Below, piece by piece: positions 5,275 to 13,325 of a DNA stretch of 64,000 nt. This DNA comes from Haliclona indistincta (taxonomy: Eukaryota > Porifera > Demospongiae > Haplosclerida > Chalinidae). The notes below the pieces were generated by a model that did no database searches, was not told the origin of the DNA, and saw nothing but the letters and a program-made list of their open reading frames with translations. A program made the translations under genes and the position numbers. The stretch lies in assembly GCA_964017065.1 (NCBI GenBank), contig OZ024784.1, positions 5,933,152 through 5,997,151 on the forward strand, read 5' to 3'. Numbering within the stretch: position 1 is the first letter of the stretch; each line of letters opens with the position of its first letter.

Positions 5275-6317
5275 ATGGCTACTAGTTCAGTTTCAATGTT
5301 ATCAGGTGACGTGTTAGAAAAGGCGAGAAGAGAACTGAACGAACAGCCCGAACAGAGAGAGGAGTCCATTACCGAATTGAGACGCAAGATTGAGGAGGAA
5401 GAGGGTAAGACAATCAAAATCGATTTCTTTGTCTAAAAAATATTTCAGGTTCAGATAATCCTGAACTTGATGGAGTTGTGTTCCAGCGCAAAGATAGTTC
5501 GTTCCTGTTACGTTTTTTGCGTGCTCGAAAGTTTGATTTGTCTCGTGCACTGACGCTGTACATCAATTATTATCGAAACCGAGTGGAGTACAAGGAGGTA
5601 TTTGATATTCCACCTCACGAATGCCGTGAAGTGCTTCACAGTGGGCTCTTGCGTGTGCTGAAACACAGAATGAAGGATGGAGCAAAGGTATGCAGCCTTT
5701 CTCACCAACCAGCTACTAGCTGTGCCCTTCTTTAGGTTGTTGTGTTCAGTCCTGGAAAATGGGACATAGAGACTACACCCAATCAGGTAGTCCTCCGCTC
5801 AATGCTGCTAGTTATGGAGAAGCTGATGGAAGAAGAGGAGACCCAGGTGCATGGGATTGCAATATTTCAAGTGTACGAAGACCTCACATTCATGAAAGTG
5901 ATGCAGTTTACACAGACTGATCTTGCCAAGAAAGGAACTGGTCTAAAGATAATGCAGGCAAGCTAGAGGGCTAGTACATCCACTGACATCTCGGTACTAC
6001 TCTGCTGCAGGATGGTTTTCCAGCTCGACTGAAAGGGCTCCATATGATAGAGCCGCCATGGTACATTAGCCTCGTGCTCACACTTGTGAAACCATTTATG
6101 AAAGAAAAAATGAGACAGAGGGTGAGATCAGCACTAGTACACTTCGTGTGATTTTATTTTTCTGTAGCTAAACACCCACAGTGGTGATTGGGCAAGCCTT
6201 CATGAGATAATATCACCTGAGCACCTTCCCTGTGAGCTGGGCGGGTCTCAGCCATCATTGGACACACTTACAGCAGGCACTCTCTTCACTGAACAAGAGC
6301 TAGCACCAGAGCAGTAG
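5275..6317 (+). CDS. CRAL-TRIO (SEC14-like) lipid-binding protein, clavesin/alpha-TTP type
   Basis: Cytosolic lipid-transfer protein of the SEC14/CRAL-TRIO superfamily. The ATG at 5275 opens MATSSVSMLSGDVLEKARRE, followed by the CRAL-TRIO-N helix region (SFLLRFLRARKFDLSRAL, the canonical FLRARKFD motif). The lipid-binding lobe contains VVVFSPGKWDIETT, VHGIAIFQVYEDLTF, DGFPARLKGLHMIEPPWYIS (matching the family's xPxRxxxxHxINxPxxF gate-helix region) and LVKPFMKEKMRQR. It ends at 6315-6317 after ELAPEQ. About five or six exons join by short introns. Length (about 280 residues) fits the TTPA/RLBP1/CLVS group. The ligand (retinoid, tocopherol or phosphoinositide) cannot be told from the sequence. 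Confidence 0.88.
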
Positions 6318-6530
6318 TACACACTCATCAGTTTATAGTTTTGTATACAGTGAACCATTCATTACAGCTGGAAAAAATACTGACTCTATTGCAGATTGAA
6401 TGATAGATCATAATTTGAATAGAACATCTTTTCAGTATTGATATTGTGTGTTACATTCTTTGGGAAAATGTGACTTCCAGTATTGTCTATAGAGACCATC
6501 TGATAACCATGGCTTGCCTAGAACAGGGAA

Positions 6531-9500
6531 TCAGTGATCCTGTATTAGCATGCACTTGTTTGCCTTACGTCTACCACTCCAGTGTAGGATGAAGGCCTCA
6601 GTCAACAGGTGCTGTGAAAGGCTGGTCTTCCATCCTAGTCCATTAATATTCCATCTGTAGTCAACTGGTTTCCATCTACCATGAGCAACAATGAGAAGGA
6701 GAGGCTGTGTACCTAGCTGCCATAGTGACTTGTTCATATGCTGTGAGAGTTGATAGATCAAGAGAGTAGTTACACAATACTAATGCTGACCTGTTTCATC
6801 CAGTATAGTATCTCATCATGTACTCCTTCCTTCCTCCACATTGCTAAGTTAACACCATAAACCCCAGCATTGAATGTTGGGGCGTCTTGCTGTAATCTTG
6901 TTCTGTACCTTCACAATCGCACAAAACACAACCATTGATGATTCATCTATACATGTCTTGTCGGCAACCCACAAAACATTTCAAACCTTTGATAGTAAAG
7001 ACTGTCCACTTCAGAACGGAACATTTGTTTGTATGTCGGCTTGTTTCTGTGGACGGTGCATTCACTGAATGAATAGGTACAGTATAATTGGTGATACCTT
7101 GGAGCAGCAAGTACTAGCTGGTCTGATTGTATTAGCTGATCCCACAATGGTGTGACATCAGCTTGAACCACTGTGTCGGCATCAAGATACAGTATGTGTG
7201 ATAGTGATGGGAACAGCCTGTCACAATGTTCACTAGGTCTGCTTATACAATTTAAACTGTTCACTTACTCATGGAAGAAGAAACGAGCAAAATTAGCACC
7301 GCTAGCCAGATTACCAACCATCTCTTGCTTGGCTGTCACCTTCACTAGTCCCTGCAGCTTAAAGGATTCAAAATATACCACGTCCACCTGAAGAAAGATT
7401 GAGTTATGTCGACACCATCACTACTATACTAAGATTGTGAGTCACCTTGATGTTCCTTTGTAGTGTAATACAGTTTAGTAATTGTTGTACAGTTTCTGGA
7501 AGGTCATTGGTAATCACTACATGTACATGTACTTGCTGTGTGGTAGCAGTATACTCTTGTAGAGAACTAATGAGAACTAGAAGACCAGGAAAATGGTCGC
7601 TGTCAACTGATACTACGACATGAACAAGTGTTGCAGTGGTAGCAACAGTAGAAGTAGTGTGTGGTAGTACACAGCTGTCTGTTGCACTGTCCCACGATCG
7701 TGAAGGATGACAGGTGCAGCTGTAGTTAGCAGGAGCATGCTTCACACATGATGAGTGAGAGGGGCAGCGATCATTAGCCAAGGAGCAGTAGTCAACATCT
7801 TAATTGTAACAAACAAATGAAATATGGTGCATGGTCACTATATCATTCACCTATCACATAGAGCCCTTTGTGAGAGTTTTTAGTCCAATGGATCCATTTG
7901 TTGGGAGGCTGAACTGAGTGCTTCAGTAGTCCATTAGAGTTGAAAGCTGTTTAAGAGGGAGCATGTGATTGTGGCTGTGTCTATATACCTACCAATGCAT
8001 CTGTGAGTGCTCAAGCATGACTTAGTGAGTTTAGCGACATCATCCACTGCATTGGCAGCATAGAGGTAGTCCCCACCAGGAGTGTCCATACCCTGCAGTA
8101 TATTATAGGAAAATTAGTGAAACAACCATGACTAACTCACCTGAAAAAACACTAGCTGTGCACCGCTAACAATGCCTTTCCAGTCCACTCCATCCAACTG
8201 ATCAGCAAGCAGCTGTACTGATTCTGCCTCGCTACGTCTTTTTGGAGAATAGCTACAACAAACCAATCAGTTTGTTATTAAGACTGCCAAGACTCACATA
8301 TCAAGACATTGCTTGCCCAGTTTTACTTTATCTTCTTTACACAAACAGCTGTGCTGTGATGATCCTGCACAATAAAATATCATGTATAGTCACTCATCAC
8401 TCATTGTGATGACATGCCTGTCCTGAGGCAGGTGGCATCTAGAGGACACTCGTGTAGATCAGCAGCACACACATCAACATTAGCAATGTATAAACCATCA
8501 TCTCTGGACACATTGACCCATGCTGTCCTGGGTTGAATACGTGTCTTGATGTCTCCTCGACTGTTGAATGCCAGACACTGCTCAGTATCACGACATTTTG
8601 CCTCCAGCATCTAGAAGAGCTATCAAGCCAGTCAATACGCTGTTAATAGATTTACTGGAATTTTATGTGAGCCAGACAGACCAACTGCCTTCATGATGGT
8701 GCCACCCGGGGAGTCCACGCCTTGAGCAAACATGACATATTATCACATAATTATTATTATAATAATACCTGGATGGAATGTAAATGTCTTGTGACTAATA
8801 TCTGGCAATTGAATCTTCTTGCTGTTAGCAAATTCAATGTATCTTAATAATTCAAAGACAATGTTCATTTGCTATTCAAGAAAACTGAACTCACTTAGCT
8901 CGCATTGTTGCAATCCTCTTATTGTATGCTTGATTCATAGAAGATGTCCATTTCTGGTCCAGTGTCGATTGTATAGAGTGAGTTGACTTTAGAGACTTTC
9001 TGTAGTTATTATTATTATTGAATAATACTGCAAAAGGACTACGATTACTTACTGAAGTAAAGCTTCTCGCTTCTCATTCTCTTGCTTACTAGTTTGATTA
9101 TATTCTACAAACCATTCAGCAAACAATTTCACTCCTAATGAGGACAATAATGGTCAACACACAAGATAAGGCAATATTTAGCATTCACCGGTCTCCAGGT
9201 CAATCTTTGGTCGATAGCCGAGTATAGTCTTTGTGAGTGAGATATCAGCTTGAGTCAATGGCAGCTCGGATAGTGGAAGAGGCTGCACCTCCTACAGATG
9301 AAATACAAGGAGTCCAGTTGCTATAGGTTAGCTCACTTACTAGAGTTGCTTTTTGGGATAGCGCTTTCTCAAGGTAGTTCAGAAGAGTTTGCAGTTCTTC
9401 AGGCTGTCCTCTTCCGACATTGTATACTTCATTACAGGATACTGGAGTGTGGCTGAGAGCTAATATCACACAGTCCACTATATCACTAATGTATGTAAAA

Positions 9501-10597
9501 TCTCTTTGCACTGAATCAGACCTAAAATATATAATAAGGCACTATAGTTAATGAACAATGATGTACTCACTCATGCTTGTATAGTACTACAGTATCTCCA
9601 GCTCTTATCTTCTCAGCAAACTTGAAGACAGCCATGTCTGGTCGTCCCCATGGGCCATACACAGTAAAGAATCTGAGTCCAACTGCAAGTAGTCCATGAT
9701 CGCTACAGTAGCCAGACACTAACTCCTCTCCTGCTTGCTGGAGTATAGAGGGGAAGACTAGAAGCAAGACTACGTCGTGTCTATACCTTTAAAGCAGCAT
9801 ACATGTTAGTTGGAGGAGAGGGAGGAGCAAGTGGAGAGAATGGGAGGGCACTGCTTCGTCCATACACACTAGAAGATGATGCATAGACTAGTAAAGTGTC
9901 CTGAAATTGCAACAGATCATTGACAATGGTTCAAACCTAGCTAGACTGTTCCTTACCTTGTAATCTGTCAGTACATCTAGTAGTGTGGTTAGACATGCTA
10001 TATTGGCCTGCACATACACTAGCGGATTCAGTAGAGATTGACTAACACCAGCCTGAGCAGCCATGTGAACAACATCTGTGAACTTATGTGCAGCAAAGAG
10101 ATGATTAAGAAACCTCTCATCGCAAAGATCAGTACGATGCACAATGACTCCTATAGAAAGCAACATTTAAAACTACTAGTCTCTCTCTCCTTTGCTTGCC
10201 TTGCTGCAGCAGTATACTGGCTCTCTTCTCCTTCAGACCAACATCATAATAACTATTAAAGTTATCAATAACCACCACCTCCGTCCATTTTCTCATTGTC
10301 GCCAGTTGCAGAGCTGTGTGAAACCCAATAAATCCTGCACCTCCGGTGACTAGTACAGATCCGTGTGGTCTATGGTCATGATTTCTAATATGGTGATCCC
10401 TTTCTGAACAGTGGCAAATGAGGTACTGATCATTGTGACTGCAGAGAGAAGAACTGCACACACACACCTGCATTAATATCTTTCACTAGTGAGAATTTTC
10501 TCGCAGAGTAGAGAGAAAGAATGGAGATGGTGACGGCGATGATCAGGAAGAGCAGGAAAATGCAACACAACCTTCTTCGCACCCCTTTATCCGCCAT
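6531..10597 (-). CDS. Membrane-anchored fusion: UDP-glucuronate 4-epimerase-like domain + two PAN/EGF-like modules + GT8 glycosyltransferase
   Basis: A single minus-strand exon chain. The first exon encodes a type II anchor ([20 protein letters not shown]...). It is followed by a short-chain NDP-sugar epimerase: [17 protein letters not shown] (NAD Rossmann loop), [33 protein letters not shown], Tyr-xxx-Lys in [37 protein letters not shown] and [13 protein letters not shown]. This matches bacterial and plant UDP-GlcA 4-epimerases. The next exons join without a stop to a linker, then two repeats of a G[VM]D[ST]PGG...AFNS.G..K...QP...W module, each followed by an EGF-like Cys cluster. A GT8 domain completes it ([11 protein letters not shown] with the DxD motif, [26 protein letters not shown]). 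I followed intron phases through every later junction; only the anchor-to-epimerase junction (about 10430-10480) is ambiguous. Two introns use GC donors (10199/10198 and 8417/8416). An upstream in-frame ATG at 10642 is possible. Confidence 0.8.
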
Positions 10598-10717
10598 GCT
10601 CTCTGCAGCATGTGAGGGCGGGGCTGATAATATACCGCCCACTGCATTATGTACACACCCTCGTGGCGTGCGGCTCTGTAAACTGCAATGGTCAACTATG
10701 CAAATACTGTGTAGGCC
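10598..10717. promoter_or_regulatory. Head-to-head spacer, putative bidirectional promoter
   Basis: 120 bp lie between the ATGs of the epimerase-GT8 gene (minus) and the CAP-Gly gene (plus). It contains a GC box (gggcggggctg near 10617) and an octamer-like atgcaaat near 10698. The regulatory role is inferred from position and motifs. Confidence 0.5.
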
Positions 10718-13325
10718 ATGCCCGGTACCTCAGCAACAGACGTGATGGAGGAACAAACAAACAAAGAGCCAACTAGTGGTCCGAATGAATCAGAGCAGGT
10801 CACCAAAAATGTCCCAACAGAGACGGACTTGGGCAAGAGAGTGCTCTTCTACACAACCGACAATAAAGAACGACACGGGACATTGAGGTGACGGCAAGAT
10901 AGTTCAGTAGAGCATCAGGTTATAATTCCCTTCATTCTGCAGGTACTATGGTCGGCTAGAGTTCGCTGACGGCGTGTGGTGTGGAATTGAACTAGACGAG
11001 GCAACCGGACGCAACAATGGAAGCGCCAGGGGCATTCGCTACTTCTCCTGCGATCAAGATCATGGCATCTTCGTGCTGTTAAACAGAGTAGAGCTAAGCA
11101 GGCGGCCTTCAAAGTCAGGACTTACTCGTAGCAGCTCGTTCCATAATGTAATTGCTGGATTAATGCCAAGGAAGATGTCTGTTCCTGTAAATGGCAGCAA
11201 GCCCAGTAAAGCCATTCCACCACACCTGAGGAAACCAAAGGCGGGGCTGCTGAAGAAATCTCGCTCAGAGTGGGACCTTTTGAGTGGAGGGACCAATAAA
11301 ACAAACAAAGGAGCAGGCAGAGCGGGACTGTCACTAGATAGGAAGAAGGAGCTAGGCAGCTACTCGGACCTAAAATCAGTAGGCACGAGTAATGGAGAAA
11401 ATTTGGTAGCAATGAAGAGGAGAATGCTTCGATCAACAGCTAGTTGTGCCAACCTCATAACAATTAAAACAGTTAAAAGAGGAGATGACAAAGAGGAGAC
11501 AGACAGAGAGGAATGGAGTTTGAACACGAGGTCAAACAGTGTCGTTAACTGGCCACGCACATCCAGTCCCGTTGAGACACAAAGCAATGGTGCAGGAGAG
11601 AGAAGATACACTAGCAGCAGTAGTGACTCTGATCACACTCCTGTTTCCTCTCCAACTACTTCAACTACTTCAACTTCACTCAAAACACAATATCCCTCTT
11701 CACCAAATAACTCACCAACCTCACCAACCACTACCAAGCTAAACAAATTCAACCGCTTCACTGACGATGTGTTCACCAGTCATCCAGCAAGAGTACCAGC
11801 TCCTACTGGCCTAGCGACTCACTCTTCGTATATCATAGAGTCATTACGAGGCACAGACTCTAATGGTCCCATGTGGTCAGCTGCAAACAGGAGAACACAC
11901 CAACCTTCACGTAGTGCACCTACCACACCCAGCCACCATGCACTATTGAATGGAGGAACCACTACTAGAGATGGAGGAGGAAAGGTAGGATTAACTAGTT
12001 GCAAATTCTTTCGTCTTTGTGCAAGTTACATGTACTGTAGTTTATTGAATTATAATAATTAATTTTCCATTAGACAACACGCACAATATGTTGGCTTCTG
12101 TTGTTCACTACTCATGATCTACTCTGCTGTTTGTGATTTATTTCATTGTCCAGGTACTCACAAGATCACCTCCACCAGTAAGTGATGTGGCAACTCCTAC
12201 TACAGGTACTGCTGCTATCACTATCTCATCTCTTACAATAATCATTACCCACTCGCTTACAATCAACACCTTTAGTGTGTTTGGTCAGTAAACATGTCCT
12301 TAATACACACAGAGTCACTGTTGGCTAGGATAGTTCAACTAGAGCAGATCGTGAAGGGGACACAGTCAATGATGCAATCACAAGCTGAGGCATTTAAACA
12401 ACAGATCAACAATGGTACGTACGAGCATATAATTTATGTTGATATCAAGTTGATCATTTTGCATGAGACATTGTAAGATTAAACCTTTAGTAACAGAAAT
12501 GTAATACAGCAGTTAGTTTGGAAATATCTTACCAACTATTTCTTCTATTTCATTATCATTAGTTGAGAGCAGATTGCAAGCTAAGGTGAGTAGTGGTCAT
12601 GGTATGTATCTCATTACATAGCATGATGCAGCATACAACTGACCTGAGTATAGTATCTCGTATCTCTATTTAGCTTGATGAAGCAGCCAAGGAACACAAG
12701 GAGCAGCTCCAGAGACTAACTGTTGATCACGATGAAGAAATGAGAGTACTGCAAATGGCACATCAAGTCAACATGAGAGGTGAGAACAGACCATTCTATG
12801 ATATGAGCTCAGTTGTTAGTGGTCATTGATTGGCCGGTTGTGGAGTCTATAGTCAGTGACTGTAGTACAATAGACGACATGTGTGTGGTGATTGTTGTGG
12901 TCACACCATTGAACTACACACTATATTTAGTTTGTTTCCCATGTACTACTCTCTTGAGACTGCAGCTTGTCAATGAAACTTTCTTTCACCTGCAGATATG
13001 TTGAAGGAGGGACAACCGTGGGAGCATCTTGGTACAGAGTGTTAGCATTCTCACTACTTCACCATAATACTCTATAGAATAGTTGTGTTCAAGTGTATTT
13101 GCAGCGAATTCATTAATATTTTATTAACATCATATTTTATTAACATCAGTTAATATCACCAAGGAAGAGCTAGCTAGGCTGGTGGTAACACAAAAGAACC
13201 GGTATACCGTTATGCGCGTATACCACGGTACCAATAAGCAATTGCGCTGTGCGGATTGTATGTGCCTACTCGCGCATGCTCAGCTGTTGTCGCGCGCGCG
13301 CGCCAAAGTAAAAGAGATCAAGTAA
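10718..13325 (+). CDS. CAP-Gly domain microtubule-binding protein with coiled coil (CLIP-like)
   Basis: The ATG at 10718 starts MPGTSATDVMEEQTNKEP. A CAP-Gly domain spans two exons (GKRVLFYTTDNKERHGTLR, then YYGRLEFADGVWCGIELDE, GIRYFSCDQDHGIFV), though the usual GKNDG loop is replaced by GRNNGSARG. A single large exon to about 11983 encodes a Ser/Thr/Pro-rich, basic, low-complexity linker. Small exons after 12154 encode coiled-coil segments (SLLARIVQLEQIVKGTQ, LDEAAKEHKEQLQRLTVDH, EMRVLQMAHQVNMR). The last inferred exon begins after 13147 (VNITKEELARLVVTQKN) and runs to TAA at 13323-13325, only 78 bp before RRM1, so its 3' end overlaps the likely RRM1 promoter and is the least certain part. 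The role in microtubule plus-end binding follows from the CAP-Gly family. Confidence 0.78.

What the first reader, a model, noticed from the sequence alone, without database searches (positions are those of the whole stretch)
6531..10597. One gene fuses a UDP-glucuronate-epimerase domain to a GT8 glycosyltransferase in a membrane-anchored protein
The exon chain can be followed with compatible intron phases from the epimerase ([10 protein letters not shown] ... GPWGRPDMA ... ILGYRPKID) through the linker and modules to the GT8 DxD domain, with no stop, polyA signal or new start between. In plants, UDP-GlcA 4-epimerases are type II Golgi proteins making UDP-GalA, and GT8 GAUT enzymes use UDP-GalA. 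An animal protein with both parts after one anchor suggests a Golgi enzyme that makes and directly transfers a uronic acid (channelling), possibly for an extracellular or adhesion glycan. I know of no described enzyme with this architecture. The sugar specificity is inference.
Basis: partly seen in the sequence, partly recalled or inferred. Interest (0 to 1): 0.88.

Follow-up and report, generated by a model that had tools for sequence, protein, structure and literature searches.

The report
Sponge enzyme: sugar epimerase fused to transferase
One gene in a sponge-like animal genome encodes a membrane-anchored protein that joins a predicted UDP-glucuronate-to-galacturonate epimerase to a GT8 sugar transferase, and the same fusion occurs in other sponges, an annelid and unnamed sequences, so some animals may make and attach galacturonic acid, a sugar best known from plant pectin.

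Summary
The minus-strand gene runs from ATG 10597 to stop 6432: 23 exons, 22 introns of 45-84 nt, 1002 aa (a model, no cDNA). Order: membrane anchor, epimerase, coiled-coil and two Cys-rich repeats, GT8. Collinear single proteins exist in Geodia, Dysidea, Capitella, a EukProt transcript and two further records. Active-site residues fit UDP-glucuronate 4-epimerase, except Ser148 for a phosphate-binding Arg. Unnamed proteins join the same pair in reverse order, with epimerases from another branch. Best reading: a lumenal enzyme making UDP-GalA and transferring alpha-GalA. One gene is near certain; the epimerase reaction is likely; the transferred sugar and channelling are inference. Against: nine of 16 related records lack GT8, prokaryotic GT8 relatives rarely neighbour such an epimerase, and the sponge glycan passages I saw name glucuronic, not galacturonic, acid. 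Seven library searches aimed at the fusion showed no description in the listings.

The parts
6432..10597 (-). whole coding region, 23 exons, 1002 aa: exons 10597-10468, 10403-10200, 10150-9957, 9900-9787, 9737-9571, 9521-9341, 9291-9189, 9134-9053, 8999-8895, 8842-8769, 8720-8656, 8610-8418, 8364-8298, 8252-8141, 8092-7993, 7946-7851, 7798-7446, 7387-7269, 7217-7098, 7046-6987, 6902-6791, 6740-6569, 6517-6432
   Evidence: hand gene model, splice sites and phases checked by script; collinear with P0001-P0004
10468..10597 (-). exon 1: short basic tail and single membrane anchor (type II signal anchor)
   Evidence: hydropathy peak 2.94 (19-residue window) at residues 10-29; highest value after residue 60 is 1.49
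9095..10403 (-). UDP-glucuronate 4-epimerase-type SDR domain (residues about 58-378)
   Evidence: PF01370 2.1e-46; best PDB chain 5u4q 9.8e-69, BcUGAepi 6zl6 2.3e-29
10041..10043 (-). codon for Ser148, at the position of BcUGAepi Arg88 (Arg in 22 of 24 rows)
   Evidence: residue table over 24 rows
9799..9801 (-). codon for catalytic Tyr210 (BcUGAepi Tyr149)
   Evidence: alignment to 6zl6, residue table
7640..9094 (-). linker: coiled-coil helix plus two repeats of a Cys-rich module, each followed by an EGF-like segment (residues about 379-715, 16 Cys)
   Evidence: repeat 1 against repeat 2: 30% identity, E 3e-21; some relatives carry PF27506 and PF12947 in precomputed annotation; long helix in the models of two relatives; Cys count
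6432..7639 (-). GT8 glycosyltransferase domain (residues about 716-1002)
7175..7183 (-). DxD metal-binding motif D832-A-D834 in YLDADT
   Evidence: motif list
7047..7097 (-).
   Evidence: removes an insert absent from homologues

Best explanation
A single-chain bifunctional enzyme of the secretory pathway. An N-terminal anchor holds both domains in the lumen (inferred from the anchor and the Cys-rich modules). The epimerase domain, using bound NAD+, oxidises C4 of UDP-glucuronic acid, rotates the 4-keto intermediate and reduces it to UDP-galacturonic acid. The GT8 domain, a metal-dependent GT-A fold, takes that UDP-GalA and transfers alpha-galacturonic acid to an extracellular or matrix glycan. 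The Cys-rich linker spaces the two active sites or binds the acceptor. Shown from sequence: one frame, both domains complete, conserved architecture, conserved active-site residues. Inferred: location, substrate of each domain, coupling, acceptor.
For: One frame without stop or internal polyA signal. Six other records carry both domains in the same order: Geodia P0001, P0002, Dysidea P0003 (its record lacks the start of the epimerase), Capitella P0004, EukProt transcript P0005, P0007; Halichondria P0137 has the end of the epimerase plus linker and GT8. P0002 is a 970-aa frame on a 3059-base contig, almost no room for introns (inferred to be cDNA). BcUGAepi positions 127, 149, 153, 178, 185 and 280 are kept and 126 is Ser for Thr; the window has neither the Lys that UDP-galactose epimerases have at 85, nor their Tyr or the Val of UDP-xylose 4-epimerases at 280. 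GT8 has DxD, GTQP and HxxGxxKPW; the nearest solved fold moves a galacto-configured sugar. P0026 and P0028 join the same two domain types in reverse order; their epimerases are on another branch, and one clade with the 16 related rows is rejected (p-AU 7.1e-72, group named after seeing the tree). The Branchiostoma record that lacks GT8 has also lost the catalytic Tyr (one case).
Against: Ser148 replaces the phosphate-binding Arg; R88A in BcUGAepi lowers kcat about 21-fold (PMC11519531 Table 1, passages). Ala at position 85 is also what UDP-xylose 4-epimerases have, though the four plant rows share it. Of the 16 rows of the clade, 9 have no GT8 in their record: four lie on contigs of 1.9-7.6 kb, but Branchiostoma, Owenia (partial), two Lamellibrachia records and transcript P0034 do not. 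Of 80 prokaryotic GT8 loci (the best of 442), 6 had an epimerase match in the flanks with the animal queries (7 counting the plant query) and only 2 a close one; the nearest had none. No residue of GT8 was shown to read a carboxylate, and lone GT8 relatives share the GTQ motif. P0026 and P0028 carry another domain between the pair and KHW in place of KPW; P0088 has only a weak GT8 match. Passages on sponge glycans name glucuronic acid; 'galactur' occurs in neither text (PMC10971851, PMC7828597).
Confidence: 0.57

Rival explanations
1. Fused but not coupled by the same sugar: the epimerase makes UDP-GalA for the lumen in general, while GT8 uses another donor such as UDP-Gal or UDP-GlcA and the fusion only co-localises them.
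For: Nearest solved fold is LgtC, a UDP-Gal enzyme; LARGE1 and others follow. Several relatives' records keep epimerase and linker without GT8. Prokaryotic GT8 relatives rarely neighbour such an epimerase. Sponge glycan passages name glucuronic acid.
Against: A second fusion of the same two domain types in reverse order is hard to explain without a shared substrate.
Confidence: 0.28
2. In this species the epimerase half is weak or dead and serves as a scaffold or UDP-GlcA-binding regulator, with GT8 the working part.
For: Ser at the Arg88 position; its sister row P0006 has Ala there. The Branchiostoma relative has a clearly degenerate site.
Against: Of the nine positions in the table the other eight are the same as in the Geodia, Dysidea and plant rows; R88A in BcUGAepi still turns over, at about 5% of wild type.
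Confidence: 0.12
3. Two neighbouring genes wrongly joined.
For: No cDNA of this species was seen.
Against: Introns of 45-84 nt throughout, no internal polyA signal, a conserved linker, six collinear single-protein homologues, one of them a transcript.
Confidence: 0.03

Closest known systems
UDP-glucuronate 4-epimerase (BcUGAepi of Bacillus cereus; plant GAE)
   Same: SDR domain, catalytic Ser/Tyr/Lys, carboxylate-binding Ser, Thr and Arg; plant GAEs are type II Golgi proteins (recalled)
   Different: Fused to a linker and GT8; Ser replaces Arg88; plant rows fall on another branch of the tree
GT8 alpha-1,4-galactosyltransferase LgtC
   Same: GT-A fold, DxD, Gln at the LgtC Gln189 position by my reading of the alignment, HxxGxxKPW
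   Different: LgtC is a lone bacterial enzyme using UDP-Gal; by the same alignment its Asp188 is Thr here
Plant GAUT galacturonosyltransferases (GT8)
   Same: DxD and HxxGxxKPW (passages)
   Different: No fused epimerase known to me (recalled); subfamily membership untested
LARGE1
   Same: Animal enzyme with a GT8 domain among the nearest folds; membrane-anchored (recalled)
   Different: Its second domain is another glycosyltransferase (recalled), not a nucleotide-sugar epimerase
GAL10 fusion protein (mutarotase and UDP-galactose 4-epimerase)
   Same: Fused enzyme holding a related epimerase (row 1z45)
   Different: Cytosolic, galactose catabolism (recalled); no glycosyltransferase

Membership tests
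UDP-glucuronate 4-epimerase | complete extended-SDR domain with GxxGxxG | tested here: met
   PF01370 profile positions 1-240 of 240; TGGAGFIG in the translation
UDP-glucuronate 4-epimerase | catalytic Tyr149, Lys153 and Thr/Ser126 | tested here: met
   Y210, K214, S185
UDP-glucuronate 4-epimerase | carboxylate binding by Ser127, Thr178, Arg185 | tested here: met
   S186, T239, R246; roles: PMC12338863 (Thr/Ser network, Arg185) and PMC11519531 (S127), passages; that the Thr is Thr178 is recalled
UDP-glucuronate 4-epimerase | specificity positions 85, 211, 280 (Pro, Gln, Thr in BcUGAepi) | tested here: inconclusive
   Ala, Val (by my reading of the alignment) and Thr here; not the Lys, Gly/Ala, Tyr of UDP-galactose epimerases; Ala but not Cys or Val as in UDP-xylose 4-epimerases; plant rows also have Ala and Thr at 85 and 280
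UDP-glucuronate 4-epimerase | phosphate-binding Arg88 | tested here: not met
   Ser148; R88A lowers but does not abolish turnover, so taken as modifying rather than defining
UDP-glucuronate 4-epimerase | conversion of UDP-GlcA to UDP-GalA | not testable with these tools
   needs enzyme assay
GT8 glycosyltransferase | PF01501 over its cut-off | tested here: met
   146.5 bits, cut-off 24.3
GT8 glycosyltransferase | DxD and HxxGxxKPW | tested here: met
   YLDADT at 830, HWSGRRKPW at 970
GT8 glycosyltransferase | retaining transfer from a UDP-sugar | not testable with these tools
   needs enzyme assay
GAUT/GATL subfamily of GT8 | closer to plant GAUT than to other GT8 | not tested
   no plant GT8 sequence was at hand; the 37 PDB sequences of the profile search include none named GAUT
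type II Golgi glycosylation enzyme | one N-terminal anchor after a short basic tail | tested here: met
   hydropathy; RRR at residues 7-9 of the translation
type II Golgi glycosylation enzyme | Golgi residence | not testable with these tools
   needs localisation
EGF-like domain | PF12947 over its cut-off | tested here: inconclusive
   19.8 bits in the window against 28.5; over the cut-off in P0137 (28.6), P0008, P0010 and P0025, under it in P0005

The most novel reading that the evidence does not exclude
An undescribed family of animals and probably their unicellular relatives performs on-site galacturonosylation: a nucleotide-sugar epimerase and a transferase in one lumenal chain make and hand over UDP-GalA, giving some animals an acidic, pectin-like sugar on matrix or adhesion glycans; the same coupling arose a second time, in reverse order, in other organisms.
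Probability: 0.47. Interest if true: 0.85.

Novelty: new variant of a known kind. Interest (0 to 1): 0.65.

Why it matters
Galacturonic acid is usually regarded as a plant and bacterial sugar (recalled). A conserved enzyme that could make and attach it in sponges, annelids and their kin would add a donor sugar to animal glycobiology. It would also offer a candidate for part of the unusual acidic glycans of sponge cell adhesion: glyconectin's acidic glycans are described as holding significant amounts of fucose and uronic acids and as different from classical glycosaminoglycans (PMC7828597, passages), and a lectin of Halichondria panicea, whose genome has a member, is inhibited by galacturonic, polygalacturonic and also glucuronic acid, fucose and fetuin (PMC4557014, passages). 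The sponge passages I saw that name the uronic acid name glucuronic acid, so galacturonic acid there remains to be found. The opposite-order fusion makes substrate coupling directly testable.

Full report
Gene structure. The window lies in an unnamed 144-Mb assembly of 46 contigs. On the minus strand a single reading frame runs from ATG 10597. A first hand model gave 22 exons and 1019 aa. Alignment of its GT8 part with relatives exposed an insert that is a 51-nt in-frame intron with GT-AG ends. The final model has 23 exons, 22 introns of 45-84 nt (20 GT-AG, 2 GC-AG), and 1002 aa ending at 6432. The only AATAAA/ATTAAA on this strand between 10700 and 6100 is at 6158, past the stop. No cDNA of this species was seen.

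Domains. A hydrophobic anchor is at residues 10-29 and the highest value after residue 60 is half as large. Between the enzymes lie a long helix (seen in models of two relatives) and two repeats of a Cys-rich module, 30% identical to each other (E 3e-21), each followed by an EGF-like segment. The EGF match is under Pfam's cut-off in the window but over it in P0137, P0008, P0010 and P0025. Some relatives carry a recent Pfam entry, PF27506, in their precomputed annotation; its name was not available and the local Pfam copy did not report it. P0001-P0003 and P0137 end in a further Cys-rich tail, which in P0137 scores as EGF-like but below the cut-offs; the window lacks it.

Relatives. The database search with the whole protein found 677 hits among 7994 scored candidates and listed 120. 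Collinear relatives with both domains are P0001 Geodia barretti (43% identity, 94% covered), P0002 (42%, 95%; a 970-aa frame on a 3059-base contig, hence probably cDNA), P0003 Dysidea avara (41%, 92%; its record lacks the first part of the epimerase), P0004 Capitella teleta, P0005 (a EukProt transcript labelled complete; organism not shown) and P0007. A search with linker plus GT8 added P0137 of Halichondria panicea, a model that begins inside the epimerase and then holds linker, GT8 and a Cys-rich tail. P0005 and P0007 show a second GT8-like stretch at the C-terminus. Records with epimerase and linker but no GT8 also exist. Of the 16 rows of the clade around the window (called holozoan here by inference from its named members), 7 have GT8 and 9 do not; four of the 9 lie on contigs of 1.9-7.6 kb (P0006, P0009, P0014, P0023), while Branchiostoma P0008, Owenia P0010 (labelled partial), Lamellibrachia P0019 and P0027, and transcript P0034 are not so easily dismissed. 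Whether these are losses, split genes or incomplete models is open.

Second fusion. P0026 and P0028 have a GT8 domain (2.4e-39, 1.1e-36) N-terminal to the epimerase (2.9e-51, 6.3e-51), with another domain between; P0088 has only a weak GT8 match (4.1e-6). Their GT8 motif ends in KHW rather than KPW. In the tree their epimerases lie nearest to two proteins fused to PF01762 (94/71), away from the window's clade (92/84; deep branch 98/93), and forcing them together with it is rejected (p-AU 7.1e-72). The group was named after seeing the tree, so the p-value is optimistic. In the GT8 tree the reversed pair groups with the lone relatives (82/80), not with the fused set (82/89), and neither branch is starred. 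Other listed hits join the same type of epimerase to PF04765 or PF01762; an Arabidopsis DUF616 protein is described as co-expressed with pectin genes and predicted LgtC-like (PMC3522684, passages; that DUF616 is PF04765 is recalled).

Evidence against coupling. Of 80 prokaryotic GT8 loci (the best of 442; some on short contigs), 6 have an epimerase match at E 1e-15 within the flanks with the animal queries, 7 counting the plant query, and 2 (L084, L090) a close one (32-39% over more than 310 residues); L014, the nearest GT8, has none. So the GT8 lineage as a whole is not tied to UDP-GalA. On the glycan side, the Sarcotragus paper reports glucuronic acid and neither it nor the glyconectin review contains 'galactur' (PMC10971851, PMC7828597, passages).

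Novelty. Seven library searches aimed at the fusion or its product in animals listed no title or abstract start that describes it; several listings were capped (20 of 74, 20 of 28, 15 of 21, 15 of 128, 15 of 74) and the library holds open-licence papers only. Three more searches had other aims. A 2011 survey counted 10 metazoan UDP-glucuronate 4-epimerase-like sequences and placed a Monosiga one beside plants (PMC3220709, passages); no mention of a fusion appeared in the passages seen. The window gene is therefore a new member of an apparently undescribed family whose parts are known. The organism is inferred to be a sponge only from the gene tree: window, P0006, Geodia, P0002, Dysidea and P0009 form a starred set (95/89).

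Noticed in passing
window 10715-12062, + strand: CAP-Gly protein gene (PF01302, 4.7e-23), head to head with the fused gene; an ATG of its first exon lies about 120 bases from the fused gene's ATG, so the promoter may be shared.
   Followed up: partly
window about 5409-6317, + strand: CRAL-TRIO gene (PF00650, 3.2e-25), tail to tail with the fused gene; stop codons about 115 bases apart.
   Followed up: partly
G000:C2:5428861-5429532, L001: Another GT8 gene in the same contig, 680-aa open frame, very distant from the fused one.
   Followed up: partly
P0005 and P0007, C-terminus: Second GT8-like stretch after the first GT8 domain.
   Followed up: no
P0008 (Branchiostoma): Epimerase plus linker without GT8, with the catalytic Tyr replaced by Glu: probably a non-catalytic relative.
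   Followed up: partly
P0047, P0067, P0071, P0072, P0045, P0051: The same type of epimerase fused to PF04765 or PF01762 by precomputed annotation, hinting that fusion of this epimerase to glycosyltransferases happened several times.
   Followed up: partly
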